Shown piece after piece: positions 15,470 through 44,975 of a stretch of 44,975 bases of DNA. Numbering within the stretch: the stretch's first letter is position 1; each line of letters begins with the position of its first letter. The notes beneath the pieces were generated by a model. The model ran no database searches. It was not told the DNA's origin and saw only the letters and a program-made list of their open reading frames with translations. The translations under genes and the position numbers were made by a program. This DNA is from Frankia tisae (GTDB lineage Bacteria > Actinomycetota > Actinomycetes > Frankiales > Frankiaceae), in contig NZ_JANEZT010000004.1 of NCBI RefSeq assembly GCF_025403405.1, positions 1 to 44,975 of the forward strand. Direction: 5' to 3'.

Positions 15470-15562
15470 CGGGGACCCGGCGTGGGGCATCGATCAGACT
15501 AGGGACGTCTGGGTACAAGCCGACGCATTGCAACATCGAACCGGCGCGAGGAGGCGTTTACG

Positions 15563-16321: not shown

Positions 16322-16332
16322 GCCGCCGATCT

Positions 16333-18169: not shown

Positions 18170-18958
18170 TTACGGCTTGCGGCCGATGGCGCCGTAGGCG
18201 CTGACCTGCGCGTCGGTCAGGTCGGCCGGCACGGCGGCGTCGGGCCGCCAGCGGTGCACCGACACGAGCCCCGGGTCGATCAGCTCCAGCCCGCCGAACA
18301 GCGCCTCGACCTCGGCGCGCGTCCGAGGCCGCAGCGCAATCCCCTGCGCACGGTAGGCCCTGGCGCCGGCCTCGATCGACGGGTCGTGGTCGGGGGTGAG
18401 ATGAGACAGGACAAGGTGGCTGCCGGCGGGCAGGGCGTCGACGAGCCGGCGGACGATGCCACCCGGGTCGTCGGAGTCGGGCAGGAAGTGGCCCACCGCG
18501 AGCAGCGACAGCGCCACCGGCCGGGCCAGGTCGAGGGTGTCCACGACCTCCGGGGCGGCCAGGATCCGCCTGACGTCCCGCACGTCGGCGTCGAGGTAGG
18601 CGGTCCGCCCCGTCGGGGTGCCGGTGAGCAGCGCCCGGGCGTGGGTGAGCACGATCGGGTCGTTGTCCACATAGACGACCCGGGCGCCCTCGACGGCCTC
18701 CTGGGCGATCTCGTGCAGGTTCGGGCTGGTCGGGATCCCCGTGCCGATGTCGAGGAACTGGTCGATGCCGACCTCGCCGGCCAGGTAGCGCACCGCCCGG
18801 GCCATGAACGCCCGGTTGGCCCGGGCGGCGGTGCTCGCGTTCGGCGCGACGGCCCGAGCCTGCTCGGCGGCCTTCCGATCGGCGGGGAAGTTGTCCTTCC
18901 CGCCCAGGTAGTAGTCGTACATCCGAGCCGGGTGAGGCAGGTCCACCCGCAGGTCCAC
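18170..18958 (-). CDS. DUF574-family SAM-dependent methyltransferase (Methyltransf_19)
   Basis: A 262-residue protein of the large actinobacterial family once called DUF574. Diagnostic blocks: PHPARMYDYYLGGKDNFPAD near the start, FLDIGTGIPTSPNLHE (SAM-binding loop), VVYVDNDPIVLTHARALL, and the C-terminal YGAIGRKP. Start is a GTG at 18958 with GAGGGG six bases upstream. The natural substrates of this family are largely unknown. A paralogue lies at 40700-41536. It converges on the NagZ gene with only a 4-bp gap. Confidence 0.92.
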   Translation of the reverse strand: MDLRVDLPHPARMYDYYLGGKDNFPADRKAAEQARAVAPNASTAARANRAFMARAVRYLAGEVGIDQFLDIGTGIPTSPNLHEIAQEAVEGARVVYVDNDPIVLTHARALLTGTPTGRTAYLDADVRDVRRILAAPEVVDTLDLARPVALSLLAVGHFLPDSDDPGGIVRRLVDALPAGSHLVLSHLTPDHDPSIEAGARAYRAQGIALRPRTRAEVEALFGGLELIDPGLVSVHRWRPDAAVPADLTDAQVSAYGAIGRKP

Positions 18959-31919: not shown

Positions 31920-31920
31920 C

Positions 31921-32409
31921 ATGACCTCACCCCACACGGACGCCGTTCAGCCCGGTGACCGAGCCGGCCGCACCGGCCCGGTGCTGTTCGCCTATGACGG
32001 CAGTGACGTCGCCGGTCACGCCATCCAGTACGCCGCAACGCAGCTTCCGCCCGGACGCGAGGCGCTCGTCGTGTGCGCCTGGCAGCCGGCCGATGTCGGA
32101 TTCACCCCGGTCGGCTCGCAGCATTTCGACGCGAACAATGCCGCCGAGGTCGAGAAGGCCGCGGCCGGCATCGCCGCGCACGGTGCCGACCTCGCGAACG
32201 AAGCCGGATTCCGCGCCCAGAGCACCACCGTTCAGGCCGCACCGACCTGGAAGGGCATCATCGCCACCGCCGCCGAGCACCAGGCGGAGCTCATCGTTCT
32301 CGGCGCCCATCGGCACTCCCGGCTGGCCGGCCACCTGCTCGGCAGCGTGGCCACCTCCGTCGTCGCCCATGCCGCCGGCGCCGTCCTGGTCGTCCACCAG
32401 CGCGACTGA
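31921..32409 (+). CDS. Universal stress protein (UspA family)
   Basis: A 162-residue single-domain Usp. It has the N-terminal LFAYDGSD strand-loop and the C-terminal nucleotide-binding pattern G-x2-G-x9-G-(S/T) seen in LGAHRHSRLAGHLLGSVATSV, so ATP binding is likely, although the first G is followed by Ala-His. Starts immediately after the MFS stop. The fused operon suggests that the stress protein modulates or is induced with the exporter. Confidence 0.92.
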   Translation: MTSPHTDAVQPGDRAGRTGPVLFAYDGSDVAGHAIQYAATQLPPGREALVVCAWQPADVGFTPVGSQHFDANNAAEVEKAAAGIAAHGADLANEAGFRAQSTTVQAAPTWKGIIATAAEHQAELIVLGAHRHSRLAGHLLGSVATSVVAHAAGAVLVVHQRD

Positions 32410-32440
32410 TCCGAGCCGGTCAGCGCAGGCAGTCGCAGAG

Positions 32441-32495
32441 AGCGGCAGAGCCCCGCACCCTGGATGGGGGTGCGGGGCTCTGGCCTGTCTCAACC
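32441..32495. repeat. 55-bp hairpin element, copy 1
   Basis: A perfect 13-bp stem (32447-32459 with 32469-32481) lies in a 55-bp sequence repeated at 36145-36199 with two differences. Here it follows the uspA gene and may act as its transcription terminator; no T-run is present. Confidence 0.8.
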
Positions 32496-32555
32496 AGAAG
32501 CTCGCGACCCGTCGGGCCGAGTAGCCGCGCCAGGCCCGCGAGGTGCCGGGCCCGG

Positions 32556-33185
32556 CTACCGGCCGCAGAGGACCAGGTCCAGCAGGTCGTCGATGCCGGC
32601 CTTGATGCCGGCGACGCTGTAGCCGCGGTAGGTCCGCTGGTAGGTGATCAGCGTGGCGGCGACCGCCGCGAGCAGGGCGTCCGCGACGTAGGCGGCGTTG
32701 GCGCGCGGCTTGATCTGGCCGATCAGGTAAACCAGATGGACGCGGTGGAACGTGTAGGCACCGGTCTCGTACCTGACCGTCGGCGAGCTCGTCTCGGCGC
32801 TGACGAGCAACGCCCGCTGGGTCTCGACCGCGTCCACCCGGGCGTGGAGGAAGGCGCGCAGCCGCTCGGCGGGCGGCGCGCCGGGGCCGAGCGGCGGCGG
32901 GCCGTAGACGAACCGTTTCTGCAGCTCCAGCTCGAACAGGCCGACCACCGCGTACACGAGGCCGGCGCGGTCGCCGAAGCGCCGGTAGATGGTGCCCACA
33001 CCGACGCCGGCCGCCCTCGCCACGTCCTCCACCGAGAACACGCCCTCGGTCGCGACCAGGCAGCGGGCCGCCTCGAGGATCGCCGCCCGGTTGCGCGCGG
33101 CATCGGCGCGCTCCACGACGAGGTCCCCCAGCAGCGGCAGTTCGGTTCCGGGCCGCGGCCTGGGCGGCCCTACCTGCTCAGCCAT
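32556..33185 (-). CDS. TetR-family transcriptional regulator
   Basis: A 209-residue repressor. N-terminal helix-turn-helix is clear (AAILEAARCLVATEGVFSVEDVARAAGVGVGTIYRRFGDRAGL); the C-terminal part matches the common TetR ligand domain. Start ATG at 33185. It is divergent from the damaged MFS gene at 33301, with three copies of a CCGGAA-N4-TTCCGG-type operator between them. Confidence 0.92.
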   Translation of the reverse strand: MAEQVGPPRPRPGTELPLLGDLVVERADAARNRAAILEAARCLVATEGVFSVEDVARAAGVGVGTIYRRFGDRAGLVYAVVGLFELELQKRFVYGPPPLGPGAPPAERLRAFLHARVDAVETQRALLVSAETSSPTVRYETGAYTFHRVHLVYLIGQIKPRANAAYVADALLAAVAATLITYQRTYRGYSVAGIKAGIDDLLDLVLCGR

Positions 33186-33200
33186 AGTGATCCCAACTTA

Positions 33201-33271
33201 CCGGAACGGCTTCCGGATAGTCCTTGCATCCGGAATGCCTTCCGGTTAGCCTCGACCGGAACCTCATCCGG
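33201..33271. promoter_or_regulatory. Three TetR-type operators between regulator and MFS gene
   Basis: CCGGAA-N4-TTCCGG occurs perfectly at 33201-33216 and 33230-33245. A third site, CCGGA-N6-TCCGG at 33256-33271, differs at the inner pair. Spacing between starts is 29 and 26 bp. Confidence 0.8.
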
Positions 33272-33300
33272 ATACCCAGCCGGCCCTTCGGAGCCCGGCG

Positions 33301-34479
33301 ATGGACGAAAACGACCCCCGGCGCTGGCCGATGCTCGCGACCCTGCTCTCCGCGACCTTCATGCCGGGATTCGACGCGAACGCCGTCAACGTCGCCCTAC
33401 CATCGCTGCACCGGGAACTGGGCGCGGGATCCGCCGCGCTGGAGCTGGTCATCGGCGGCTACCTGTTCACCTACGCATCGTTCCTGATCACCAGCGGGCG
33501 GCTCGGCGACATCTTCGGCCACCGCCGGCTGTTCATGACAGGCATGGCGGGCTTCGCCGTGACGTCGCTGCTGTGCGGTCTCGCCCAGTCACCGACACAG
33601 CTCGTGGTGGCCCGGCTGCTGCAGGGCGCGACGGCCGCCGCGATGGTTCCGCTGTCGATCGGCCGGCAGAAGGGCTGGCCGGTCTGGGCCTGGGCCTGCC
33701 TGATCGCCGCCGTTCCGACGCTGGCGCTGGCACTCGGGTGGGAGCGTCGGCAGGCCGCGCCGCTGGTGAACCTGGCGCTGTTCCAGCGGCGTTCGCTCGG
33801 CATCGGCCTGCTCATGTACGTGGCGTTCATGTCCTTCTTCGTCAGCATGACGTTCGCGCTGTCACTGCTGCTGCAGTCCGGTCTCGGCCTCAGCCCGCTC
33901 GCCGGTGGCCTCACGTTCGCGCCGTTCGCGCTGCTGGCGATGGTGGCCGCGCTGCTGAGCGAGAAGATCACCGCGCGGCTCGGCCAGCGGGCGCTGACCG
34001 TCGGCGCGCTGCTGAGCAGCCTGGGCATGTTCGGCCTCGGCCTGGAGATGGTCGTCCTGCACGGCGACATCACCGCAGCCTGGATGCAGCTGCCGCTGTG
34101 CGTGATCGGCCTGGGCAACGGGCTCATGCTGCCGTTGTTCGTCGGCGTGACGATGTCCGACGTCAAGCCGGCCGAAGCCGGGTCGGCATCCAGCCTGCTC
34201 ACGACCACGCAGCAGTTCTCCGGCGCGCTCGGCCTGGCCGTGATGGGTGCCGTCTTCTTCGCGGTGCTGGGCAACCACACCAGCGCCGACGGCTACGCCT
34301 CCGCCGCCGCGGTCGTGATGTGAATCGGGATGGGCCTGCTGCTTGGGCTCGCGGCGCTGATGCTGGCCATTCCCATCCGCCGGCCGGAGCCCGCCGCGAA
34401 GTCTCAGGCCCGGGAGCCGGAGCAGGAGCCGACGCCCGAACCGGCAACCGCGCCGGAGCCGTCCGAAGCAGTCGCCTGA
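33301..34479 (+). pseudogene. DHA2-type MFS drug transporter with internal deletion and in-frame stop
   Basis: The N-terminal part is normal (MLATLLSATFMPGFDANAVN, GRLGDIFGHRRLFMTG, LLQGATAAAMVPL). Homology then jumps directly to a region before helix 8 (GRQKGWPVWAWACL), so about 100-110 residues covering roughly helices 5-7 are missing without loss of frame. An in-frame TGA at 34321-34323 ends translation at residue 340. The same frame continues afterwards with the expected last helix (GMGLLLGLAALMLAIPI) and a Pro/Glu tail to a second stop at 34477-34479. A product from 33301-34323 might still be made, but transport function is unlikely. Confidence 0.78.
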
Positions 34480-34599
34480 CTCGAAACTGGGAGAAAGCTC
34501 GATGCGTGGATTCATCACCGAACCACCCTGACCGCTCGGACCGCTCGGACCGCTCGGGCCGCGGAGCTGCTGGCGGACCTCGCCGAACCCGACCAGCAC

Positions 34600-35250
34600 C
34601 TAACGCCAGCCGTAGCGCTGATGCAGCCGGTCCGTGACCTGCTCGAACGGCTCGCGCGGCAGGGCCGTCGACTCTCGGCGCATCCCGCCCTCGTGCACCC
34701 GGATCACCCGATCCAGGTTGACCCAGGACGGTCGGTGCTCGCTGTCCCACCCGCCCGCGCCGACGGGCACAAAGTCGCCCTCGCCGTCATGGTCCTTACT
34801 GGTGAGCTGCACGGCCAGGTAGGTGCCCGCGGATTCGACGGCCACCACGAGCACCGGCCGATCCTTGCCCCGCCCGTCGTTCTCCTCGAACGGCACCCAC
34901 GTCCAGACGATCTCGCCGGGATCCGGGGCCCCGTCCGACTGCGGCGCGTAGCTCATCCGCACCGGCCCGATGCGACCCGGATCGACCTCCCTGGTGGCGT
35001 CCGGCCCGGACTCGCCCGGCGAGACCTCCGCATTCGCGCCGGACGACCGCGCCCGCTCCCGGGCCGGGCGAGGGCGCGCGGCTGCCCCCGAGGGCGAAGA
35101 GGAGGACGAAGAGGGCGAAGGGGCCTTCGGTGTTGGTGCCGACCGCCGCCGACCTTCCCGTCCCGCCTCCCGCAAGGGTGCCTCACCCTGGCGGCGGCCG
35201 CCCGTCACCAGGTCGGACACAATCTTGACCAGATCCCCCAGCAATCCCAT
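34600..35250 (-). CDS. PemK/MazF-like toxin domain protein with long N-terminal extension
   Basis: The C-terminal 110 residues match the PemK/MazF endoribonuclease fold: GEIVWTWVPFEENDGRGKDRPVLVVA, then VQLTSKDHD and a final RVIRVHEG region. The N-terminal 100 residues start with an amphipathic helix (MGLLGDLVKIVSDLVTGG) and continue in a Ser/Arg/Ala-rich disordered stretch. Classic toxins are about 110 residues, so this one is about twice the usual size. I see no antitoxin gene next to it. It could be a solitary domesticated toxin, a membrane-associated RNase or a remnant pair. Confidence 0.72.
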   Translation of the reverse strand: MGLLGDLVKIVSDLVTGGRRQGEAPLREAGREGRRRSAPTPKAPSPSSSSSSPSGAAARPRPARERARSSGANAEVSPGESGPDATREVDPGRIGPVRMSYAPQSDGAPDPGEIVWTWVPFEENDGRGKDRPVLVVAVESAGTYLAVQLTSKDHDGEGDFVPVGAGGWDSEHRPSWVNLDRVIRVHEGGMRRESTALPREPFEQVTDRLHQRYGWR

Positions 35251-35370
35251 GCCGCCACAATAATTGGACGCCGCTGCTGCATTCGCAGCTCGACGCCGTC
35301 AGGTCGCCGGGCCCGCGCGAGCGAGGCCGCGACGGCGGCCGGGAAGCTGGACGGCAGGCGCGGGGATCAG

Positions 35371-35811
35371 TTACTCGCCACGGTCGCCGCGCCGTTTCGC
35401 CAGCTCGATCGTGACTCGCTGGCCCGGCCCGGTGGAGCTGCCGACCTCGCCGGCCAGCGCGCTCAGCACGGTCCAGGCGAACGTGTCCTTCGACGGCGAC
35501 TCGCCGTCGAGGCTGTCGACCGAGACGGTCACCCGTATGAGGCCTGGCGACAACGTGAAGACGCACTCCAGGGCCGATCCCGGGACCGCGGAGACCAGCA
35601 GCAGGGCGGAGGCCTCGTCCACGGCGATCCGCAGGTCCTCGATGTCGTCAAGGGTGAAGTCCGCCCGCGCGGCCAAAGACGCGGTCGCGGTGCGCAGGAC
35701 GACCAGGTAAGCGCCGGCGGCAGGGATGGTGAGCTGCACCACGTCGCGTGGGCCGCCACCGCGGACATCGCCGGAGTTGCCCATGCCATCGGCTGACGGC
35801 GTCGGATCCAC
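35371..35811 (-). CDS. Anti-sigma regulatory factor (RsbW/SpoIIAB-type serine kinase domain)
   Basis: A 146-residue GHKL-ATPase fold protein: the N-box region is DDIEDLRIAVDEASALLL, and the C-terminal portion carries a degenerate G-box (around SALAGEVGSSTGPGQRVTIEL). Such proteins bind and phosphorylate anti-anti-sigma factors or sequester sigma factors. Start is a GTG at 35811 with GGGGGT upstream. No sigma factor or antagonist gene is adjacent, so the partner lies elsewhere. Confidence 0.8.
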   Translation of the reverse strand: MDPTPSADGMGNSGDVRGGGPRDVVQLTIPAAGAYLVVLRTATASLAARADFTLDDIEDLRIAVDEASALLLVSAVPGSALECVFTLSPGLIRVTVSVDSLDGESPSKDTFAWTVLSALAGEVGSSTGPGQRVTIELAKRRGDRGE

Positions 35812-35873
35812 GTTCTACCCCCAGTGCTGGGTCGTTCCGGCTCCGGGACTCGTCGCCGGCATTTGGTATCGGC

Positions 35874-36140
35874 ATGCCCAGAATCAACGGTGACCAGTGT
35901 TTCCCACGGGTGCCGACACGGGCCCGAGAAGGTGCGCGTGCCGAGGTGGATGCTGTTGGCGGCAGTAGCCGGTAAGGGGCTGTGGCTGGCCGTGCGGGGC
36001 TGCTGGCGGCATCGGGTCGCGGTCGCCGCGGCCGTCGGTGTGCTGCTGTTCGTGCACCGGTTCGGCCTACTCGGCCTCGGCCTGCTGCTCAGCGGCCTGG
36101 CGCTGGTCACGGTCGAGTGGCGGGCGCACGGCCGGTCGTC
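35874..36140 (+). pseudogene. Frameshifted 5' fragment of an AICE FtsK-like transfer gene
   Basis: The ATG at 35874 begins RINGDQCFPRVPTR, matching the start of the intact FtsK-like gene at 43189. One extra C at about 35922-35925 shifts the frame; the homology then continues (VPRWMLLAAVAGKGL, WRHRVAVAAAVGVLLFVHRFG) to HGRS and stops at the edge of the 55-bp hairpin repeat. Only the first 90 or so of 521 residues remain. A relic of an earlier related element at this site. Confidence 0.82.
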
Positions 36141-36144
36141 AGGA

Positions 36145-36199
36145 AGCGGCAGAGCCCCGCGCCTTGGATGGGGGTGCGGGGCTCTGGCCTGTCTCAACC
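36145..36199. repeat. 55-bp hairpin element, copy 2, beside the tRNA-Arg fragment
   Basis: Same sequence as 32441-32495 with two substitutions; the 13-bp stem (36151-36163 with 36173-36185) keeps pairing through a G-U. On the minus strand it lies just after the tRNA-Arg 3' end, where a tRNA terminator would be. Confidence 0.8.
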
Positions 36200-36204
36200 G
36201 TGCG

Positions 36205-36248
36205 TGCGCTCGGAGGGAATCGAACCCCCAACCTTCTGATCCGTAGTC
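36205..36248 (-). other. 3' part of a tRNA-Arg(ACG) gene: attachment site at the left end of an AICE
   Basis: Read on the minus strand this gives the anticodon loop CTACGGA with its 3' stem, the variable loop, a complete T arm (GGGGGTTCGATTCCC) and the 3' acceptor strand GAGCGCA. The 5' half (acceptor and D arm) is absent, and three extra bases (TGA) disturb the 5' anticodon stem just outside. This is the usual form of the att core left at the distal end of an element inserted in a tRNA gene; the repaired tRNA would be at the other end, beyond the window. No CCA is encoded. Confidence 0.75.
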
Positions 36249-36259
36249 ATCAGAGCGCT

Positions 36260-36361
36260 GTCCATGGCCGTCCGCCGCCGTTCATCGACGCAGCTTGGGT
36301 ACCCGACGACGTCCACCCTCGTCCACTGGTGTCCACCTCGGTTGCAGTACAAAGGCAGTAC
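36260..36361. repeat. Helically phased short direct repeats next to the att core
   Basis: GTCCAC at 36311, 36321 and 36331 is spaced exactly 10 bp; the related GTCCAT/GTCCGC occur at 36260 and 36270, also 10 bp apart. GCAGTAC occurs at 36344 and 36355. Such arrays near an att core fit arm-type binding sites for integrase or excisionase. Confidence 0.6.
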
Positions 36362-36424
36362 GGCGCCTTCCGAGTAGGGGTAACGGTCCGTGTCCGGCGA
36401 GGCCGACGAGCAGCCGAAAGTACG

Positions 36425-37690
36425 TCAGGTAATTGGATCGGAGCTTGAAATGATAATCGCTTCTGACAATGACCTCAGCAGAGGCAACTCTCGGCGCAAT
36501 CTATTGGCATGATCGAAAGGGCGATATCTTGGCAGATCGTTATTTTTTGAGTGCACAATTGCATTTCTAGTTTTATACACCCGCCGCGCAAGAGAAGTAA
36601 CGATTTTTGTATTTTCTGCTTCGCCAAATGGAATGACATCACCTTCCGAAAAGTCAATCTTGTTCGACTTATAGTAGGCGATTGCAGAGCCATCTAGCGA
36701 CGATATTGATTCAGTCAGTTCCGCGATGTCAACATACCTCGAAACTACAAGCTCTAGTGCTTTTTGTTCGTTTACCGGCGTAGCGTCATCGCGCTGCTCT
36801 CGAGTTAGCTTCGATACGAGCTTTACGAGCTGTGCAATATCAAGTTCGCGATTTGCGGAGAAGGATGGTGCCTGTATTTTCTTTCGAATCTGACTTCTAA
36901 CTTCTTCGTTATAGATTTGCTCAAAGAAATGCTCCGCGATGTGGTAGTAGCTTAAAAAGCTGACCATCGGCTCCCTCGATGAAACGGCTAGCAGGTAGTG
37001 ATGGACAAGATCGCGACTATAGGCGAGGCGCGGGGGTTCAACGTCTTCGAGCGCCACCCTCCGACGCCTTGTTGTCCGAGTGCGCCGAGCTGGGAAATCG
37101 TCGAACTCTGCCATCGGAGCGCAGGCTATGTTCATATTGTAGGCGAGCTGAAACAGTGCCGCATCTCCAAGTTCGGACATTTTCTTAACCGAAGCTGGAT
37201 TTTTGCTTGCGACTTGCAGGGAGATGTATCTGAAGTAGACCCTCAGGCCATCAAATATCGATCCTTTAATTTCTCCCATATATGTTCTTACGCCCAATGT
37301 CATCAACTCTTCTTGATTGAGGGCGCCGTCTTGCGCTAGTTCGCAGATCCTCCAGGACAGGAATTTATCCGTAGGTTCGCCGAGCCGGTAAGAGTACCCG
37401 CTTGCGCTGTCGTGCAGTTCTATAGATTTTCCACGACGTATGGCAGGCGGACGGATGCCGGCACTTTCTTCGCGCACAAGTATTTCTAGACTTTGGTGCC
37501 AAGAAACTGACGCTCCCGGACCGGCGGTGGCGACGTCGGCGAACTCCAGCATTAGCTGGAGATGGTCATCGGATGTTCTTAGTTCGTAATCCTGCCCCCT
37601 CGTATGCCATTCTTTTTTGGATTCGACAAACTCTGTCGACCCTCCCATTAAGGTTGATGCAAATTCCATGAAAGCTTTCGCGTCGATCAT
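36425..37690 (-). CDS. Low-GC protein with a C-terminal HEPN-type RNase motif, possible anti-phage cargo
   Basis: A 421-residue protein from the ATG at 37690 (GGGGG upstream; a -10-like TAGAAT lies about 30 bp before it). An in-frame start at 37819 is possible but adds an Arg-rich extension. The C-terminus contains RNAIVH (about residues 375-380), the R-x4-H active-site motif of HEPN ribonucleases, after a helical region (SFLSYYHIAEHFFEQIYNEEV) like that of ApeA-type HEPN proteins. The gene is far more AT-rich than everything around it, so it was acquired recently. It is the first gene inside the element next to att, where AICEs often carry defence or accessory genes. Function inferred; target RNA unknown. 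Confidence 0.72.
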   Translation of the reverse strand: MIDAKAFMEFASTLMGGSTEFVESKKEWHTRGQDYELRTSDDHLQLMLEFADVATAGPGASVSWHQSLEILVREESAGIRPPAIRRGKSIELHDSASGYSYRLGEPTDKFLSWRICELAQDGALNQEELMTLGVRTYMGEIKGSIFDGLRVYFRYISLQVASKNPASVKKMSELGDAALFQLAYNMNIACAPMAEFDDFPARRTRTTRRRRVALEDVEPPRLAYSRDLVHHYLLAVSSREPMVSFLSYYHIAEHFFEQIYNEEVRSQIRKKIQAPSFSANRELDIAQLVKLVSKLTREQRDDATPVNEQKALELVVSRYVDIAELTESISSLDGSAIAYYKSNKIDFSEGDVIPFGEAENTKIVTSLARRVYKTRNAIVHSKNNDLPRYRPFDHANRLRRELPLLRSLSEAIIISSSDPIT

Positions 37691-37921
37691 TTGAGCCCCC
37701 GCCTGTCCAGCTTTTATTCTACGATAATCCTCGGAGAGTCCTTCGCTTGTAGTTTCGCCCTTTCTATTCTTCGCTGTCGAGGCGCGACGACGCCGGCGAG
37801 CATGGCGCGCCAGCGCCACGCGCAGCCGCCGCGCGGCGCGGCTGTCCCGCTGACCCTCTTGATCCTAAAATGAGGGATTCGGCAACGCACGGCCTTCGGC
37901 TTCGTCGCCCGGTCATTCGGT

Positions 37922-39088
37922 TCATGGGCCTGAGCCGCCCAGGACCGGGCCACCCGGCCAAAGTTCGGCGAGGTCGGCGGGGGTGAGGGGCTGGTGGTAG
38001 GCGGTGCGCAGGACGGTGGTGATGGTGTCGGGGGTGGCGGTGTCGGCGAGGGTGACGAACCAGTCGATGCCGGCGGCGTAGGACCACAGGTAGGAGCGCA
38101 ACAGGGGGTCGGCTCCGCGGTCGGTTAGGGCGTCGGCGATCGTGTCGTCGGTCCAGAACGGGACGCGAGCGTGGGCATGGGCCACGCAGTCGGCGATGGA
38201 CCTACCGACGTTGATGGCCTGGTGGAGTTCCGCGCGGACGAGCTGAAGGTAGTGGTCCAGACGAACGCGGGCGGCCACGGCCTCGTCGTCAGGCGTGGCG
38301 AACAAGGGTAGGGCCTGGGCCAGACCTTCCAACAGGACCTGTTGTTGAGCGTGTACCGCCGTCACCCGGATCCAGTCGACGTCATGAGTCGCCGCGACGG
38401 TGGCCCAGTTCGCGGTCTGCAGGGCGTGGCCGAGGATTTCGTGAAGGGCGAACTGGCGTAGGCGGACCTCGGTGAAGTGGGCGTGGCGGCGGTTTAGACG
38501 AAGGCGGACCTTGGTGCCGGCGCCGTCGAGCCAGTAGGACCAGTAGGCGTCGATGTCGACGCTCTCGATGGTCAGGTCGTAATCGGTGGTGGCGCCGGTG
38601 ATGCGGCGCACAGCGGGTTCCAGGTCGGCGGCGGCGGCACGCATCAGGTCGGCGACCTTGTCCTCGGACACCCGTCCTTCGAGCCGGTCGAGGTCGCGGG
38701 CGGTGTCCGGTCCCCAGGACACGCCGAGGCTTTCGATGGCGGCAATGGCGCGGTTTCGGCAGGCGGTGACGTGACTGTCGGGCCATCCGGCCACGCCGCA
38801 ACCCTGGGTCGCGCGGACGTAGGCGTCGAGGGGCTGGCGTTCACCGAGGAGGGCTTGCAGGTAGGCGAGGTGGGCGCCGATCCGGTCGGCGAACCGCTGC
38901 TCTCCTTCGGCGACGGCGCGGTGGTGCAGGTCGGTCAGTCTCTCGTGGGCGTCGAGGCGGTGCGCGACCGGAGCCGGAGCGGTGTCAGGTGGCGCGCAGT
39001 CGAAGTCCACGACCGGCGGGCAGCCGCGGGCGCGCTCGTAGGCGTCCCAGGCCCGCAGCGTGGTCTCGATATCGTCACGCAAGGTCAT
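37922..39088 (-). CDS. Putative zinc metallopeptidase-like protein (HEILGH motif)
   Basis: A 388-residue protein with FALHEILGHALQ (HEILGH at residues 216-221). This HExxGH pattern is known in M49 dipeptidyl peptidase III; a Glu in LLEGLAQ (about 254) could be a third zinc ligand. The rest is mostly helical and not clearly M49. Overlaps the stop of the upstream HTH gene by 14 bases, so both are co-translated. The pairing of HTH regulator and metalloprotease resembles ImmR/ImmA logic, where a protease relieves repression, although the order and sizes differ. Confidence 0.7.
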   Translation of the reverse strand: MTLRDDIETTLRAWDAYERARGCPPVVDFDCAPPDTAPAPVAHRLDAHERLTDLHHRAVAEGEQRFADRIGAHLAYLQALLGERQPLDAYVRATQGCGVAGWPDSHVTACRNRAIAAIESLGVSWGPDTARDLDRLEGRVSEDKVADLMRAAAADLEPAVRRITGATTDYDLTIESVDIDAYWSYWLDGAGTKVRLRLNRRHAHFTEVRLRQFALHEILGHALQTANWATVAATHDVDWIRVTAVHAQQQVLLEGLAQALPLFATPDDEAVAARVRLDHYLQLVRAELHQAINVGRSIADCVAHAHARVPFWTDDTIADALTDRGADPLLRSYLWSYAAGIDWFVTLADTATPDTITTVLRTAYHQPLTPADLAELWPGGPVLGGSGP

Positions 39089-40061
39089 GGTCGGCGTCCC
39101 ATCGCAGTGTCACGGCCTGGCCGGCGGTCAGATGCTTGCGGGTCAGGTCGATCACGACGCGATCAGCGTCATTGCGCCAGGACAGTCCGTCGAGCGCGGA
39201 GAGTTCCAGGCCGTCGGCGCGTTCCTCTACCGCGTTACAGCCGAGCAGGCGGCGCACGCCGGCCTGGCGGACAGTCAGGACAAAGGCATCAGTAGGGCGG
39301 GCGATGGACTGCCGCCAGTAGAGCTCGTCGACGAACCGGCCCTTCTCGCAGGTGTAGCCGATCGTGGCCGACTCGCCGGGCTGAAGCGCAGGGAAGATCT
39401 GACAGGCGAACTTCGACAGACCGGGAATGTCATGCACCCGCTGAATGATCACATTGTGGTTCGGCGACGGCTGGGCCTGGATGTCGAGGATGTCGTCGGT
39501 GTGCTTGAACCACAGCTCACGGGCAAGCCGGGTGATCGGAAGCGAGCCGACGTTCACCAGTTCGTGTTCGTAGGTCAGATGGGCCGCGCCATCCGCGGCG
39601 ATGTCGATGGTGACGGCCAACCGCGTCTCCCTCGCGCCGTACGCGCCGGAGGTGGCGGCAGCGCCTCCCTCTCCTGGTGCCGCCTGGCTGGGCAGGCTTC
39701 CCACCCGTGTGATGGGCGATGCGCTGGTCGATGATCCCGACCCGGCGGGAACGGGTGGCGGGCTGCTGGTCTCCCAGGGGCGGGGCGCGAGCAGGAAGTA
39801 GGCGCCCGGGATGCGCAGCGCGTCGGCGATGCGCTCCACCAGGGTCAGCGACGCGATGCGGCTTTCCCCGCTCATCACCCGGCTGACCCGGCTCTGCGTG
39901 AGCCCCGGGACCGGCGAGGACACCCGGTCCTGGCTCGCGCCGTCGTACTTCCGCATCAACCGGAAGATCACCTGGAAGTCGCGGGCCTCGCAGGCGGCAC
40001 GGAACTCGCCGCGGGCAAGCAGCTCGGGAGAGACGGTGTAGGGAGGAGCGGGCTGGACCAT
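39075..40061 (-). CDS. XRE-type helix-turn-helix regulator with a large C-terminal domain
   Basis: A 328-residue protein. Residues about 50-93 form a helix-turn-helix (GLTQSRVSRVMSGESRIASL, then VERIADAL). After a Pro/Ser-rich linker comes a beta-rich domain of about 190 residues (TIDIAADGAAHLTYEHELVNV, YTCEKGRFVDELYW). The latter may sense a ligand or protein. It overlaps the metallopeptidase-like gene. A 17-bp palindrome lies 82 bp upstream of its start and is the likely operator. Confidence 0.82.
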   Translation of the reverse strand: MVQPAPPYTVSPELLARGEFRAACEARDFQVIFRLMRKYDGASQDRVSSPVPGLTQSRVSRVMSGESRIASLTLVERIADALRIPGAYFLLAPRPWETSSPPPVPAGSGSSTSASPITRVGSLPSQAAPGEGGAAATSGAYGARETRLAVTIDIAADGAAHLTYEHELVNVGSLPITRLARELWFKHTDDILDIQAQPSPNHNVIIQRVHDIPGLSKFACQIFPALQPGESATIGYTCEKGRFVDELYWRQSIARPTDAFVLTVRQAGVRRLLGCNAVEERADGLELSALDGLSWRNDADRVVIDLTRKHLTAGQAVTLRWDADHDLA

Positions 40062-40142
40062 CGCCGGTCTCCTCGTCTCCGGGCCGACCTTGTCCCGGTC
40101 AGCGGTGGTGTGGTCAGGCTGCTACGCAGAGACTAGCGCCGT

Positions 40143-40159
40143 CATACCACGGTGGTATG
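40143..40159. promoter_or_regulatory. 17-bp palindromic operator
   Basis: CATACCACGGTGGTATG, a perfect inverted repeat of 8-bp arms around one G, between the minus-strand regulator operon and the plus-strand methyltransferase operon. Probable binding site of the HTH regulator. Confidence 0.7.
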
Positions 40160-40391
40160 GACAGTTCGCCGCTCTTCTGCCGCTCACGCGCCCGGATAAC
40201 GCCGGCCAAGCGCTCGCCGGGTGGTTCGCCCGCTCACCGCCCATGCGTCCTGTGCCTTGCCATCGTGACCTTCCGCGCCTGCCAGGCGGTTCGTGAGGCT
40301 TGTTCATGTGCCCCCCGCCCCGCGTCGAGTCCCGACCTCCGCGGGGCGGGGCGGCGAACAACGAACCCGGTGTGGCCCAGGTGGGAGGAAC

Positions 40392-40703
40392 ATGGTGGGA
40401 CGGACAGACGCGGGCGCGGGACGCGGGTCGATTGTGCGGGGGCCGTCGCGGCGGGAGCTGCTGGGCGCCCGCGTGGCCGGCGACGGCGGCTCGGGGTCCG
40501 GTGGGCCGCCGCTGGCTCCTGGCGGGGGCGGTGTGCATCGGGTGCTGTGGGCGGTTGTCGTGCGGGGGCCGCGCGGCGCCCTGCTGGGCGTGATCGGGTT
40601 CTTCGCGACGCGGGCGGCGGCCTGGGCCTACATACGGGATCGACACTTCCCGGGCGCTCTGGTACTTCCGGCCATGCCTGCCGGGGCGGAGCTGACCGGA
40701 TGA
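40392..40703 (+). CDS. Small unknown protein coupled to a DUF574 methyltransferase
   Basis: A 103-residue protein from the ATG at 40392, with GGGAGGA six bases upstream. A Gly-rich N-terminal part (GDGGSGSGGPPLAPGGGG) precedes a compact C-terminal segment (HRVLWAVVVRGPRGALLGVIGFFATRAAAWAYIRDRHF) that looks like a small strand-helix unit. Stop and next start overlap (ATGA). No family recognised. Confidence 0.6.
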   Translation: MVGRTDAGAGRGSIVRGPSRRELLGARVAGDGGSGSGGPPLAPGGGGVHRVLWAVVVRGPRGALLGVIGFFATRAAAWAYIRDRHFPGALVLPAMPAGAELTG

Positions 40704-41536
40704 CCGCCGATCAGCAGGCCGTCGAGCAGGACACGACGGACCCGATACCGGGCGCGTCGTTTGACCTGTCGGTGGCGCACCCGGCGCGGATGTATGACTA
40801 CTACCTCGGCGGCAAGGATCATCTGCCGGCCGACCGGGCGGCGGCGGAGCAGGTGGTGGCGGCGTCGCCGGACGTTCCGCTCGTCGCGCGGGCGAACCGT
40901 GACTTCATGACCCGGGCGGCGCGGTTACTCGCGGCCGAGTGCGGGATCCGCCAATACCTCGACGTCGGAACTGGCATTCCCACGAGTCCGAACCTGCACG
41001 AGGTGGTACAGGCCGTCGACCCGACGTCCCGGATCGTCTACACCGACAACGATCCGGTGGTCCTGACGCACGCCCGCGCGCTGCTGACCAGCTCGCCGGA
41101 AGGTCGCACGGCCTACCTGGATGCCGACCTGCGCGACCCGGCGCTCATCCTCCGCGCCGCGGAACTGCGCGACGCACTCGACTTCCACCGGCCCATCGCG
41201 CTGTTCCTCGTCGCGGTGCTGCACTTCCTGACCGACGACGACGGGGCGCACGCCCTGGTGCGCTCGCTGGTCGACGCCCTGCCCTCCGGCAGCTACCTCG
41301 TCGTCTCGCACGCCACCGGCGACCTCGCGCCCCGCAACGTCGGCCAGATCGTCGACACCTACACCGCGACGGCCGCGCCGCTGGTGCTGCGGGGCCTGGG
41401 GGACGTGTGCCGGTTCTTCGCGGGCACGGAGGTCCTCGGTCCGGGCGTGGTGCGGCTGCCGCTGTGGAAGCCGGACGAACCGCCAACAGGCATTGACAAG
41501 GTCTGGGTCTACGGCGGCGTCGGACGGAAGCCCTGA
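40700..41536 (+). CDS. DUF574-family SAM-dependent methyltransferase (Methyltransf_19), AICE-borne
   Basis: A 278-residue paralogue of the protein at 18170-18958, with HPARMYDYYLGGKDHLPAD, YLDVGTGIPTSPNLHE, IVYTDNDPVVLTHARALL and the terminal YGGVGRKP. Frequent on actinobacterial chromosomes; here carried inside the element and coupled to the small gene before it. A strong hairpin follows. Substrate unknown. Confidence 0.9.
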   Translation: MTADQQAVEQDTTDPIPGASFDLSVAHPARMYDYYLGGKDHLPADRAAAEQVVAASPDVPLVARANRDFMTRAARLLAAECGIRQYLDVGTGIPTSPNLHEVVQAVDPTSRIVYTDNDPVVLTHARALLTSSPEGRTAYLDADLRDPALILRAAELRDALDFHRPIALFLVAVLHFLTDDDGAHALVRSLVDALPSGSYLVVSHATGDLAPRNVGQIVDTYTATAAPLVLRGLGDVCRFFAGTEVLGPGVVRLPLWKPDEPPTGIDKVWVYGGVGRKP

Positions 41537-41676
41537 TCCACCCGTCCGCACGCGACGGGTTCTCCCATACCGAACGAATCAGTATCCGAAACAGCGCACC
41601 CCATGAACGTGGCCGGTCTCCGTGATCGCTCCACCCCGGCCGCTGCGGTCCTGGGCTGACCGCACGCATCGGCCAC

Positions 41677-41711
41677 GATGGGCCGAACCCTGATGACGGG
41701 TTCGGCCCATC
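41677..41711. terminator. Bidirectional hairpin terminator between convergent genes
   Basis: A perfect 14-bp stem (GATGGGCCGAACCC with its complement) around a 7-base loop, between the ends of the methyltransferase (+) and HTH (-) genes. Confidence 0.85.
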
Positions 41712-41718
41712 GGCGTGT

Positions 41719-42138
41719 TCAGGTCCGATCCGGCTCGCCGGACCTGCTGATCGTTTCCTCGACCGCGGCAAGCCGGCGGGCGATCTCGCCAAGACGGTCC
41801 TCGACACGGGCGAGTGCAGCGAGGATCTCCCGGCCAGGGTCCCCGGTCGGCTCGCTGCCGGTGGGCGTGCCGGCCAGCAGGACGTCGATGAGGTGGTTGT
41901 CCGGCCAGTCCAAGGCGCGGGCGATCGCGGTGAGGGTCTTGTTCTGCACCCGCCGGCCGGCGCCATGCTGAAGCTCGCGCAGCGTCGAGACCGACACCCC
42001 GGACTCCCGCGCGAGGTCCTGCTGACCGATGCGGCGCCGGGCCATCCGCTCGTTGAGCGCCACGGCGACCGCGGCCCAGTCCTCACCGTCCGCCGGACCA
42101 CGAGTGCGATACACCCGCAGGGTTTTCCGGTCAGCCAT
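41719..42138 (-). CDS. XRE-family HTH regulator of the AICE
   Basis: A 139-residue repressor-like protein: helix-turn-helix in the middle (RRRIGQQDLARESGVSVSTLRELQHG), then RVQNKTLTAIARALDW and a C-terminal coiled coil (ALARVEDRLGEIARRLAAVEE) suited to dimerisation. Divergent from the Pra-like gene at 42355, so it may act as the switch that keeps transfer and excision genes off, as KorSA does in pSAM2. That role is inferred from position. Confidence 0.82.
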   Translation of the reverse strand: MADRKTLRVYRTRGPADGEDWAAVAVALNERMARRRIGQQDLARESGVSVSTLRELQHGAGRRVQNKTLTAIARALDWPDNHLIDVLLAGTPTGSEPTGDPGREILAALARVEDRLGEIARRLAAVEETISRSGEPDRT

Positions 42139-42354
42139 GCGCGCATATTAGCGGCCGGTCGAAACGGGAAGCGGCACCGCCTGCGCGTCATATCACCATG
42201 ACATGACCCTATGCGTACCGCATGGGCAGCATCTCAAAGCTGCATCCAACGCTAAGTTGGCGGTTGATGCGCGCTTGCCGAGCGGAGCACTGTGTATCCG
42301 GCGGCCGGAACCACCGGCCGGCTCGACGGAACACGGCGAGTGGAGGAAAACACG

Positions 42355-42759
42355 GTGGCGGTTCCGCAACGTATTCCGGTGCGATTCGAGGACGTCTTTC
42401 CGCAGGGGGCGTACGTGCTCGCGGTGGAGGCGGCGAACGACTTCGAGAAGGTGAAGGCGGGCCTGGCGGACGTGCAGGCCCGTGACAAGGGCAACGGCGA
42501 GCGGGTCTGGTCGGTGCGCGTCCTGGACGCGGACCCGGCGGCACGCAAGTCCGAGGTGAAGGTGAAGATGACCGGCGAGACTCCCCCCGATCTGCCGGAC
42601 ATGCTGCCGGGGACACCGTTCCGGCCGGTGGTCTTCGATGGTCTGCTGGTCGTCCCCTACGTCGACTCCAACGGCGCTCGTCCCCGCCAGGAGTACTCGC
42701 TGCGGGCCTCGGCCATGCGGCCGGCCAACACGGGCCGGCGCCCGGCGGTGGCGGCATGA
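42355..42759 (+). CDS. pra: Pra-like plasmid replication, integration and excision activator
   Basis: A 134-residue protein resembling the Pra activators of pSAM2-type elements: IPVRFEDVFPQGAYVLAVE, then RVWSVRVLDADPAARKSEVKVKM and PFRPVVFDGLLVVPYVDSNG. In pSAM2, Pra switches on replication, integration and excision genes. The GTG start at 42355 has GGAGG eight bases upstream. Overlaps the next gene (ATGA) and heads the transfer operon, downstream of a divergent repressor-like gene. Confidence 0.72.
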   Translation: MAVPQRIPVRFEDVFPQGAYVLAVEAANDFEKVKAGLADVQARDKGNGERVWSVRVLDADPAARKSEVKVKMTGETPPDLPDMLPGTPFRPVVFDGLLVVPYVDSNGARPRQEYSLRASAMRPANTGRRPAVAA

Positions 42760-43055
42760 CGGGCCGGCGAGGTCCGGCGATCGATGGGGTTCGATCGGCA
42801 ACCCACCTTGGCCTGCACGTGGGTGCGGACTGGTCGGTGGCCTGCCACACCTACGCCGACCGGTCGCCGATTCTGACGGTCCGGCTCGGGTTGGCATCGG
42901 TGACGGTGTCGGCGCTGTCAAATGCGGTCACCTCGGACCATGTTGATTTCGCCTATGCGTTGATCGCGGCGGTGAACGACTACCTGGTGGAGTGCGAACG
43001 CATTCGATTCACCTCCGAGGATGCCGCCGATCCGGCGGAACCCCGGGCAGCGTAG
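42756..43055 (+). CDS. Small hypothetical AICE protein
   Basis: A 99-residue protein coupled to pra by ATGA overlap. Contains a strand-rich core (GLHVGADWSVACHTYADRSP, LTVRLGLASVTVSAL) and a helix (DFAYALIAAVNDYLVECERIRF). Small unknown proteins at this position between activator and translocase genes are common in such elements. No function can be assigned. Confidence 0.65.
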   Translation: MTGRRGPAIDGVRSATHLGLHVGADWSVACHTYADRSPILTVRLGLASVTVSALSNAVTSDHVDFAYALIAAVNDYLVECERIRFTSEDAADPAEPRAA

Positions 43056-43188
43056 CCCGCACCGGCCGGTTCGCCTGGGCGGCCCGGACCCTCCGGTTTC
43101 CGGATTCCGGGCCGCCTGGACCCCCTTCTTTTCACCACTTCTTTTCCCTCTCCTGATTTCGTGCGCTCGAAAAGCGGGTGGTATTGCC

Positions 43189-44754
43189 ATGTCCAGAATC
43201 AACGGTGACCAGCGTTTCCCGCGGGTACCGACCCGTACCGAGAAGGTGCAGGTGCCGCTGTGGATGCTTCTCCTGGCCGTGGCCGGCAAGGGGCTGGTGC
43301 TGGCGGTACGCGCGTGCTGGCGCCACCGGGTCGCGGTCGGCTCTGTGGTCGGGGTGCTGCTGTTCGTGCACCGCTTCGGCCTGCCTGCCCTGGGCATCCT
43401 GCTCGGCGGCTTGGTGGTGCTCGGGGTGTTGTGGTGGCGGGTGCATGGCCGGTCGTTCTGGCCGGTGGCCTGGTGGGTGTGGGGCCGCGCCCGGCTGACG
43501 TTCGTCTACCAGCGGCGGTGGAAGCCGGCGATGGTCCACACCGACCTTGCCATCCGCATGCCCGCGTCGACCGGCGACCAGGTGACCTTCGACGAGTATT
43601 TCCCCCGGATCCGCTCCATCCGCTCGTCGCGGGCGGTGGACGTGCTGCGGGTGGAACTGCTGCCCGGTCAGACCCCGGCGGCGTGGGCGGAGCAGGCCGA
43701 AGCGCTGCGGCACGTCTTCCGGGCGCGCCGCTGCCAGGTGCATGCGGAGGCGTTCCGGTTCGTGCGGGTCGTGTTCCACCGGCATGACTCGCTGACCCGC
43801 CCGGTTCCCCCGGCCGGTCTCGATGACTCCGACGGTGCCGGCCCTGACCCGGCCGGCGCTGCCGGTGACGGTCCACGTTCCGACCGGTCGTCGCGTGTGG
43901 GTGAGTTGGTGGCGGGCCTGTCGGCGGTGCCGGTGGGCCGCTGCGAGGACGGATCCCCCTGGACGCTGCCTGTGCGTGGTTCGCATGTCCTGATCGCGGG
44001 GGCGACCGGGGCGGGCAAGGGCTCGGTGCTGTGGGGGCTACTGCGCGGCCTGGCACCGGCGGTCGCCGCGGGGCTGGTGGAGCTGTGGGTGTGTGATCCG
44101 AAGGGCGGGATGGAACTGGCCTTCGGCCGTCCGCTGTTCACCCGCTTCGCCACCACCACGGACACCATCGCCGATCTCCTCGACGACGCCGTTCACCGGA
44201 TGCAGGACCGTACGGCCGCGCTGGCGGGCACTACCCGCCTGCACCTGCCGACCCGGGAAGAGCCGCTGATCGTCGTCGTGGTCGACGAAATCGCCTCACT
44301 GACCGCCTATGTGACCGATCGGGAACTCAAGAAGCGGATCGGGGCGGCGCTGCCGCTGCTGCTGTCCCAGGGCCGCGCACCCGGGGTGGTGGTCGTGGCC
44401 GCGGTGCAGGACCCGCGCAAGGAGGTCCTGCCGTTCCGGGACCTGTTCCCCGTCCGCGTCGCGCTACGGATGACCGAAACCGACCAAGCCGACCTTGTGC
44501 TCGGTAACGGCGCCCGGGAACGCGGTGCCCGCGCCGAGGAAATCCCCCGCGCGCTGCCCGGGGTCGGCTACGTGCTGCACGACGGCAACCCCGACCCGAT
44601 CCGCGTCCGCGCGGGCTACGTGGATGACGTCGAGATCGGCCGAGTCGTCGCCCACTACCGGCCCGCATCCGCGGCCGGCGGCTGGACTCCGGACGTGAGC
44701 AACTACCTCGACGGCGACTCCGACGCGTTCGACGGCCTCGACCAGGCCGCGTGA
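43189..44754 (+). CDS. FtsK/SpoIIIE-like conjugal transfer protein (TraB/TraSA type)
   Basis: The 521-residue DNA translocase that moves double-stranded element DNA between hyphae in AICEs. N-terminal membrane part: about three helices (LWMLLLAVAGKGLVLAV to VVLGVLWWRVHG). The motor domain has Walker A GATGAGKGS at about residue 270 and Walker B LIVVVVDEI, followed by GAALPLLLSQGRAPGVVVVAA, typical of FtsK-like Tra proteins. Start ATG at 43189. A broken copy of its 5' end lies outside the att site at 35874-36140. Downstream gene overlaps (GTGA). Confidence 0.9.
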   Translation: MSRINGDQRFPRVPTRTEKVQVPLWMLLLAVAGKGLVLAVRACWRHRVAVGSVVGVLLFVHRFGLPALGILLGGLVVLGVLWWRVHGRSFWPVAWWVWGRARLTFVYQRRWKPAMVHTDLAIRMPASTGDQVTFDEYFPRIRSIRSSRAVDVLRVELLPGQTPAAWAEQAEALRHVFRARRCQVHAEAFRFVRVVFHRHDSLTRPVPPAGLDDSDGAGPDPAGAAGDGPRSDRSSRVGELVAGLSAVPVGRCEDGSPWTLPVRGSHVLIAGATGAGKGSVLWGLLRGLAPAVAAGLVELWVCDPKGGMELAFGRPLFTRFATTTDTIADLLDDAVHRMQDRTAALAGTTRLHLPTREEPLIVVVVDEIASLTAYVTDRELKKRIGAALPLLLSQGRAPGVVVVAAVQDPRKEVLPFRDLFPVRVALRMTETDQADLVLGNGARERGARAEEIPRALPGVGYVLHDGNPDPIRVRAGYVDDVEIGRVVAHYRPASAAGGWTPDVSNYLDGDSDAFDGLDQAA

Positions 44755-44951
44755 GCCGACCGGACCCATCGCCCCCGGCGGATCCGGACCCCCGCCAACC
44801 GCTGCCCTCCCTGCCGGTCTGCCTGACCTGCGGGCATCCGCGGATCGCGCACGGCCGGCGGGGCTGCCGGGCCGACGTTGCCGGTCTGCGCTGCGGCTGC
44901 ACCCGCTTCACCATCACCCCCGACTCCTCGGAGGAATCCCCCTGTCGATGA
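44751..44951 (+). CDS. Small cysteine-rich protein following the transfer gene
   Basis: A 66-residue protein starting at a GTG overlapping the tra stop. After a Pro/Asp-rich start it carries CLTCGHPRIAHGRRGC and LRCGCTRF, a probable small zinc-ribbon. Small Cys-rich genes are common after the translocase gene in AICEs. Stop overlaps the next start (ATGA). Confidence 0.65.
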   Translation: MSRPDPSPPADPDPRQPLPSLPVCLTCGHPRIAHGRRGCRADVAGLRCGCTRFTITPDSSEESPCR

Positions 44952-44975
44952 CTCCTCCCACCTCCACCCCCACCC
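44948..44975 (+). CDS. Start of the next AICE gene, cut by the window end
   Basis: ATG overlapping the previous stop, followed by nine visible Thr/Pro-rich codons. By analogy with other AICEs a spread (Spd) membrane protein or replication gene would be expected; the visible part cannot say. Confidence 0.5.

What the first reader, a model, noticed from the sequence alone, without database searches (positions are those of the whole stretch)
36205..44975. Actinomycete integrative conjugative element inserted at a tRNA-Arg gene, left end in view
The minus-strand 3' part of a tRNA-Arg(ACG) gene lacks its 5' half, and to its right lie cargo genes followed by a Pra-like activator, a small gene, an FtsK-like translocase and a small Cys-rich gene, an order typical of AICEs. 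With this tRNA orientation the intact tRNA and the integrase must lie past the right edge, so cargo occupies the whole distal end.
Basis: partly seen in the sequence, partly recalled or inferred. Interest (0 to 1): 0.75.

Follow-up and report, generated by a model that had tools for sequence, protein, structure and literature searches.

The report
Frankia mobile element, spliced at origin
The window's right end holds the left part of a conjugative mobile element sitting in a Frankia arginine-tRNA gene, and comparing it with relatives suggests that these elements swap their passenger genes exactly at the site where their DNA replication starts.

Summary
Window 36204-36249 is the 3' part of a tRNA-Arg(ACG), identical 46/46 to the intact gene on another contig (C365) of this draft Frankia genome. 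Integrase-arm repeats beside it recur at the same offsets in a second Frankia genome, so it is a genuine element end (attR). The genes to its right are an actinomycete ICE (AICE) of described Frankia family 1; the contig stops nine codons into repSA.

Corrections. The locus is layered: left of the att lie an older AICE remnant (ftsK codons about 1-92) and a third terminator copy. Beside the intact tRNA on C365 is a broken integrase; no intact tRNA-Arg-type integrase was found in the assembly. One likely gene (DzbB-like) lies between att and a conserved origin-like locus (hairpin plus CTTGATC motif, 37794-37884).

That motif has 52 matches in 24 of 35 Frankiaceae genomes. Of 24 pairs alike on the core side (at least 80%), 23 lose homology at its CTTG. 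The window core is 95-97% identical to an AICE sited at tRNA-Met in F. alni, but left of CTTG only the hairpin is shared. I infer recurrent cargo exchange and deletion at the rolling-circle nick site. Nicking itself is untested.

The parts
36204..36249 (-). 3' part of tRNA-Arg(ACG): att direct repeat (attR)
   Evidence: 46/46 identical to intact tRNA on C365; no complete tRNA in window
36250..36372 (.). distal attP arm with GTCC[AG]C repeats (36270, 36311, 36321, 36331) and GCAGTAC at 36344 and 36355
   Evidence: GCAGTAC occurs only once elsewhere in the window; same GCAGTA offsets in G001 (L138); 36026-36363 aligns to L138 at 79%
36150..36199 (-). GC-rich inverted repeat downstream of the tRNA (terminator-like), carried on the older side of the att
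   Evidence: same sequence beside intact tRNA-Arg genes in the genus; terminator role inferred
35864..36139 (+). remnant of an older AICE: ftsK/tra codons about 1-92, frame disturbed, fused to the terminator
   Evidence: 78-83% DNA identity to the window's and relatives' ftsK (74% to C285); similar junction at two tRNA-Arg repeats of G001
32441..32495 (-). third copy of the terminator sequence, probably the oldest att border; chromosomal flank to its left
   Evidence: flank 30-32.4 kb is syntenic in G001, G004, G005
36425..37690 (-). cargo gene, about 50-52% G+C, DzbB-like (anti-phage Dazbog family), borderline MauJ domain
   Evidence: PADLOC DzbB E 3.7e-13, C-terminal part; Pfam MauJ just under cut-off; G+C; matches in 3 of 35 family genomes, own included
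37794..37828 (+). core of a conserved hairpin directly upstream of the nick motif (sso-like or Rep-binding; role inferred)
   Evidence: inner 6-bp stem paired in 42 of 42 sequences; the two of its pairs left free by the search pattern change on both sides in 19 and 16 sequences
37858..37884 (+). CTTGATC-N2-AAA... motif: proposed rolling-circle nick site CTTG^ATC and boundary between cargo and core
   Evidence: 52 matches in 24 of 35 Frankiaceae genomes, control 0; homology breaks here
37922..39088 (-). 388-aa protein with HEILGH (HExxH-like) motif
   Evidence: ORF; no family hit; homologues just right of the motif in some relatives
39075..40061 (-). 328-aa XRE/HTH regulator
   Evidence: HTH_31 E 1.2e-4, below cut-off
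40700..41536 (+). S-adenosyl methyltransferase (Methyltransf_19)
   Evidence: Pfam E 2.5e-103
41719..42138 (-). Cro/C1-type regulator (HTH_26)
   Evidence: Pfam E 4.1e-8
42355..42759 (+). gene in the pra position (activator by synteny only)
   Evidence: no profile hit; homologues before ftsK in relatives
42756..43055 (+). small conserved gene between the pra-position gene and tra
   Evidence: ORF; L097 alignment
43180..44754 (+). tra: FtsK/SpoIIIE-type DNA translocase
   Evidence: Pfam E 2.1e-10; 94-95% protein identity to G001/G011 copies; 40% to pMR2 protein
44751..44951 (+). small Cys-rich ORF
   Evidence: NCBIfam RGCVC E 0.0076, below cut-off
44948..44975 (+). first nine codons of repSA, cut by the contig end
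   Evidence: 44911-44975 aligns to L097 15244-15308, where repSA starts at 15281

Best explanation
It is the distal (attR) end of an actinomycete integrative and conjugative element of Frankia family 1, integrated by a tyrosine integrase into the 3' half of tRNA-Arg(ACG), in a locus where elements have piled up: an older ftsK remnant on the left, and by inference a second, decayed element next to the intact tRNA on C365. It should work like pSAM2: integrase and Xis excise it, RepSA nicks its origin and replicates it as a rolling circle, and the FtsK-like Tra moves double-stranded DNA between cells. The added step: the origin's nick site (CTTG^ATC at 37858), directly after a structured hairpin, is also where elements are re-spliced. 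RepSA, or repair at its nick, joins the cargo-plus-hairpin arm of one element to the core of another, which gave this element a tRNA-Arg arm and a DzbB-like cargo on a core otherwise seen at tRNA-Met in F. alni. Occasionally it joins the arm to a CTTG-like site in or near int, which deletes the core, as on C365. Shown by sequence: att repeat and arms, gene order, conserved motif, sharp breakpoints. Inferred: nicking, the enzyme, excision, transfer, the unseen right half.
For: Att: 46/46 repeat, arm repeats at conserved offsets. Core: 37858-44975 is 95-97% identical to a G001 AICE with repSA, xis-like gene and int ending at tRNA-Met. Motif: 52 matches in 24 of 35 Frankiaceae genomes, 0 for the reversed control; 1 of 358 other genomes of the class has it exactly; downstream of the 52, 31 have tra on the same strand, 34 tra or rep, 42 some core gene (hand counts). 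pMR2 of Micromonospora has it with 3 changes (up to 4 allowed; 0.02 hits expected), with palindromes upstream. pC194's DSO as quoted in PMC5037232 reads CTTG^ATAATA on the other strand. Breaks: 24 of 24 pairs with core-side identity of at least 80% have, ungapped, 0-2 matching bases left of the C, and 23 of the 24 have unrelated left flanks. Of 17 long homology blocks reaching the site from the core side 16 end in the adjoining hairpin or at the motif; of 3 reaching it from the cargo side 2 end at +27 and +46. L228 and L233, one such pair, come from single-contig genomes. One-ended joints: hairpin then CTTGA (C365: CTTG), then DNA that is no origin, in L258, L279, L283, L287, L291 and C365; 5 of these 6 lead into int or to 21 bp before its start.
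Against: No nicking data. The seven bases CTTGATC are fixed by the search pattern, so the paired comparison places the break only at the spacer/motif edge or within those bases. The pairs are not independent: 10 clusters, 27 elements, at least 16 events by hand count, no tree. One pair (L104/L203) shares both sides. 10 of 52 motifs failed the hairpin filter (mismatches, N or short flank), and 10 of 52 have no core gene in the stretch held. The hairpin can also part from the cargo (L104/L204, by eye). The element's own rep, xis and int are not on the contig, and its pairing with C365 is not shown. Deletion at CTTGA micro-homology without Rep would give the same joints.
Confidence: 0.7

Rival explanations
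1. An ordinary AICE at tRNA-Arg; the break at CTTG is generic homologous recombination in the conserved hairpin/origin shared by these elements.
For: The hairpin and motif form about 100 bp of similarity between elements, and several genomes hold more than one AICE-type tra.
Against: Crossovers inside the hairpin would leave the spacer with the core; instead the spacer and left flank differ in 23 of 24 core-alike pairs. One-ended joints into int have no origin on the target side.
Confidence: 0.2
2. Cargo is inserted next to the origin by an unknown site-specific system (transposon or integrase) that targets the CTTGATC motif; Rep has no part.
For: Usually only one side of the site changes. I did not look systematically for a shared recombinase in the cargos.
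Against: The hairpin goes with the cargo; reciprocal case L188/L211 (3 kb of shared cargo, different cores) fits strand exchange better.
Confidence: 0.1
3. The right-hand module does not belong to the tRNA-Arg repeat: rep-xis-int on contig C396 (at tRNA-Ala) continues the window, and the tRNA-Arg fragment is an old scar.
For: C396 starts 153 bp after the window end in coordinates of the G001 element.
Against: C396 is only 82% identical to the G001 rep while the window is 95-97%; C285, a second AICE of this genome at 72%, is an equally good partner; C396 with its tRNA-Ala gave no blastn match to window 31901-44975 at E 1e-5.
Confidence: 0.12

Closest known systems
Frankia family 1 AICEs (Ghinet et al. 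2011, PMC3218068; sections 10 and 11 read, passages elsewhere), above all the element most likely called Faln5456 there
   Same: tra and rep order with a pra-position gene; tRNA 3'-end insertion; core 95-97% identical; the paper reports excision of Faln5456 in culture and in nodules
   Different: tRNA-Arg instead of tRNA-Met; different cargo and hairpin left of CTTG; layered remnants. The name Faln5456 for this locus is inferred from its coordinate, and G001 = ACN14a from genome length (recalled)
Fean6303 and Fcci0407 (same paper)
   Same: Fean6303: tRNA-Arg site with three repeats extending past the tRNA; Fcci0407: remnant or mobilizable element lacking tra or rep, listed among the excision tests
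   Different: I equate Fcci0407 with the tRNA-Arg locus of G003 only by gene number and genome length (recall and inference)
Rolling-circle plasmid cassettes, DSO-qacC-SSO elements (Wassenaar et al. 2016, PMC5037232; abstract, outline and passages) and abrupt cassette junctions (PMC5703833; passages)
   Same: modules swapped with junctions at the DSO of pC194-type replicons; same nick sequence CTTG^AT
   Different: there the moving gene lies between DSO and SSO on small staphylococcal plasmids; here large integrative elements exchange the arm upstream of the nick
pMR2 of Micromonospora rosaria (NC_006910)
   Same: tra, replication initiator, xis, int; CTTGATC motif with palindromes upstream
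   Different: tra only 40% identical; different hairpin sequence; motif with 3 changes

Membership tests
AICE (Frankia family 1) | FtsK/SpoIIIE-type Tra of the pMR2 clade | tested here: met
   Pfam FtsK_SpoIIIE E 2.1e-10; 94-95% to copies in G001/G011; 40% to pMR2; clade not tested by a tree
AICE (Frankia family 1) | RepSA-MR2 initiator | tested here: inconclusive
   only nine codons before the contig end; the G001 relative has PF20199 E 6.9e-108
AICE (Frankia family 1) | int and xis at the tRNA end | tested here: inconclusive
   contig ends first; on C365 an integrase pseudogene lies beside the intact tRNA
AICE (Frankia family 1) | direct repeat at a tRNA 3' end | tested here: met
   46/46 repeat
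AICE (Frankia family 1) | excision as a circle and conjugative transfer | not testable with these tools
   needs PCR or mating
RCR double-strand origin, pC194 type | nick sequence CTTG^AT | tested here: met
   37858-37884; pC194 DSO as quoted in PMC5037232
RCR double-strand origin, pC194 type | linked initiator of the RCR class | tested here: met
   RepSA matches downstream of the motif in relatives; PF20199 in the G001 protein. Not in the window itself beyond nine codons; HUH motif recalled
RCR double-strand origin, pC194 type | site-specific nicking by Rep | not testable with these tools
   biochemistry needed
DSO-gene-SSO element | mobile gene lies between DSO and SSO and is more conserved than the backbone | tested here: not met
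   here the core is conserved and the arm upstream of the nick varies

The most novel reading that the evidence does not exclude
In RepSA-MR2 type AICEs the rolling-circle nick site doubles as a base-exact recombination site: RepSA-mediated strand transfer between origins swaps cargo arms, and one-ended transfer to CTTG-like sites in int strips the core, producing int-bearing remnants. This would be a general cargo-exchange route in actinobacterial conjugative elements.
Probability: 0.5. Interest if true: 0.75.

Novelty: new variant of a known kind. Interest (0 to 1): 0.55.

Why it matters
How AICEs acquire and exchange cargo genes is usually described only as modular plasticity. A fixed joint at a predicted replication nick site gives a testable mechanism, a way to find origins and cargo borders in many actinobacterial genomes, and a possible handle for building vectors in Frankia. 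The held paper on Frankia AICEs discusses RepSA origins but, in the sections and passages I read, maps none in Frankia.

Tried and rejected
Continuation of the contig: searched own genome for the G001 rep-xis-int DNA, RepSA, tyrosine integrases and the G003 integrase; C396, C365 and partial or distant hits only, so the right end stays open. Plasmid collection with the origin segment: 2 weak hits at E 0.07. Rfam on 35801-38600: 0 hits. The 388-aa protein and the pra-position gene have no profile hits. Viral and metagenome collections, structure prediction and fold search were not used: the question did not need them.

I first considered the conserved segment as a left att or a transfer locus (clt). 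Rejected as first choice because it is not a tRNA, sits inside the element, and matches a pC194-type nick sequence; a transfer role is not excluded.

Selection effects: pairs were chosen for core-side likeness next to the site; one search is the check not anchored there (72 homology blocks of at least 85% and 150 bp; 16 start within 84 bp left of the motif or at it, against at most 5 in any other 200-bp bin). The hairpin pattern fixes four of the six inner stem pairs, so only two pairs are free evidence of co-variation.

Hairpins without the intact motif: of 80 distinct hairpins in held loci 43 were intact, 27 variants, 10 without. Of the 10, I use 5 as one-ended joints; L244 looks decayed, and L262, L268, L278, L292 carry another sequence after the hairpin and were set aside. 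L213 and L266 were counted variants by the script and are doubtful. C365 was added by hand, since its hairpin differs too much for the pattern. Of the hairpin matches, part was never fetched.

Paper searches listed no report of the AICE nick site as a cargo border; subscription papers (such as the pSAM2 origin work and the 2008 AICE review) are not held.
Full report
What was checked. The window is a whole contig, C444, of a 7.07-Mb draft genome in 882 contigs. Its translocase has its best named relatives in Frankia (95% in F. torreyi CpI1), so the host is a Frankia. ARAGORN sees no tRNA in the window, but 36204-36249 equals, 46 of 46 bases, the 3' part of an intact minus-strand tRNA-Arg(ACG) on contig C365. 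The likeness runs on through the tRNA's terminator to 36138. Several relatives put the limit of the repeat at CCGTAG, in the anticodon loop. Right of it lie GTCC[AG]C repeats and two GCAGTAC sites; GCAGTA has the same offsets (97, 108) beside a second tRNA-Arg repeat of genome G001, while G003, G007 and G009 have GTCC[AG]C repeats but no GCAGTA there. C365 carries GCAGTAC repeats next to its integrase remnant. So the fragment is an attachment site.

The locus is layered. Left of the att are the terminator copy and a disturbed ftsK start, codons about 1-92. G001 has similar ftsK-terminator junctions at two of its repeats. A third terminator copy at 32441-32495 borders chromosome that is syntenic in G001, G004 and G005; relative to G004 and G005, a TetR/MFS pair at about 32.5-34.5 kb is extra in the window. 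On C365 the intact tRNA is followed by terminator, arm repeats, an integrase pseudogene lacking its N-terminal part, a copy of the origin-like hairpin, and minus-strand cargo. Two hairpins and two cargos imply two elements in tandem, with the missing right half of the window's element between them; this is inference, as the contigs are not joined.

The element. The window's genes from 37858 to 44975 are 95-97% identical to an AICE in G001 whose right half (repSA, xis-like gene, int) ends at a tRNA-Met. G001 is taken to be F. alni ACN14a by its length (recalled), and the element to be Faln5456, which PMC3218068 reports to excise in culture and in nodules (sections 10 and 11). The window stops nine codons into repSA. 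In this genome the only long match to that right half is C396 (82%, at tRNA-Ala), which may belong to another AICE, C285 (72%). Left of 37858 the window and the G001 element share only the hairpin; the window has one likely gene of low G+C, DzbB-like, that matches in 3 of 35 genomes of the family, own included.

The origin-like locus. At 37794-37884 stand a hairpin and the sequence CTTGATC..AAA..G.....TTCGGCA. This pattern has 52 exact matches in 24 of 35 Frankiaceae genomes, with none for the reversed control, and outside the family in 1 of 358 genomes of the class. Of the 52, 31 have tra downstream on the same strand, 34 tra or rep, 42 some core gene, 10 none in the stretch held (hand counts). 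In 42 aligned sequences (10 of the 52 failed the filter) the inner 6-bp stem pairs in all; four of its six pairs are fixed by the search pattern, and the two free ones change on both sides in 19 and 16 sequences. The outer stem also looks complementary while its sequence varies (by eye). The hairpin pattern alone, with up to 2 mismatches, has 102 matches in 29 of 35 genomes, control 0. pMR2 has the motif with 3 changes and palindromes in front, and 7 of 17 more distant tra loci scanned have it within 4 changes. The pC194 origin quoted in PMC5037232 is CTTG^ATAATA on the complementary strand. I therefore read the motif as the rolling-circle nick site, and the hairpin as a single-strand origin or Rep-binding site. 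Neither is proved.

Breakpoints. Among 1326 pairs (1258 with both flanks long enough) likeness left and right of the site is uncorrelated (r = 0.03). In 24 of 24 pairs with core-side identity of at least 80%, ungapped identity is lost at the base before the C of CTTG (0-2 matching bases); in 23 of them the left flank is unrelated, and L104/L203 shares it after a one-base shift. The first seven bases of the motif are fixed by the pattern, so this comparison cannot place the break within CTTGATC. Of 36 pairs at 75% or more only L104/L203 has a left flank alike at 70% or more. In a comparison not anchored at the site, 17 homology blocks reach it from the core and 16 end in the adjoining hairpin (common to most elements) or at the motif; 3 reach it from the cargo side and 2 end at +27 and +46, including L188/L211 with 3 kb of shared cargo and different cores. 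The 24 pairs fall into 10 clusters of 27 elements, at least 16 separate events by hand count. L190/L202 is the G001 element against the window.

One-ended joints. Five hairpins (L258, L279, L283, L287, L291) run into CTTGA and then into DNA that is not an origin, and C365 has the same with CTTG. L287 and L291 lead into int by tblastn, C365 by its match to the G003 integrase. L258 and L283 match L058 at 15518-15622 and 14846-15312, that is inside and from 21 bp before an ORF at 14867-16357 that is an integrase (Pfam E 4.6e-9). L279 leads into sequence with an ftsK piece farther on. Where the joint has CTTG, intact relatives read CTCG (L258), CTGG (L287), CTCC (L283), CTTC, GTTC or GCTC (L291), and ATTG or ATCG (C365). 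That fits strand transfer to CTTG-like sites, or micro-homology.

Interpretation. The element itself is a new member of a known family. What goes beyond it is that the boundary between cargo and core in this and related elements is a sharp, repeated joint at a predicted nick site. Cassette exchange at such origins is described for staphylococcal rolling-circle plasmids (PMC5037232, PMC5703833, passages). I found no report for AICEs in the listings, but key older papers are not held. The breakpoint is well supported; that RepSA makes it is inference, at about even odds.

Noticed in passing
window 36425-37690: Cargo gene with a partial match to DzbB of the Dazbog anti-phage system (E 3.7e-13), low G+C; no DzbA hit among the three other window proteins scanned.
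   Followed up: partly
window 34600-35250: PemK/MazF-like toxin family protein (Pfam E 1.8e-11) in the old chromosomal or remnant part of the locus, syntenic in G001, G004, G005.
   Followed up: no
window 32500-34500: TetR regulator and a short MFS transporter gene lie between the third terminator copy and the PemK-like gene; absent from that interval in G004 and G005.
   Followed up: no
window 18385-18934 and 40778-41327: Two stretches in opposite orientation, 72% identical; the second lies in the Methyltransf_19 gene.
   Followed up: no
L262, L268, L278, L292: A sister hairpin (CGCC...GGCG type for three of them) followed by another sequence (TCCTGG in three) in three genomes of genus g7 and one of g5; perhaps another replicon family.
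   Followed up: no
L143, L139, L137, L138: Fragments of ftsK lie beside tRNA-Arg terminators in several strains with different end points, as if the stretch from tra to int were deleted repeatedly.
   Followed up: partly
window 13163-13196: 34-bp near-perfect palindrome.
   Followed up: no
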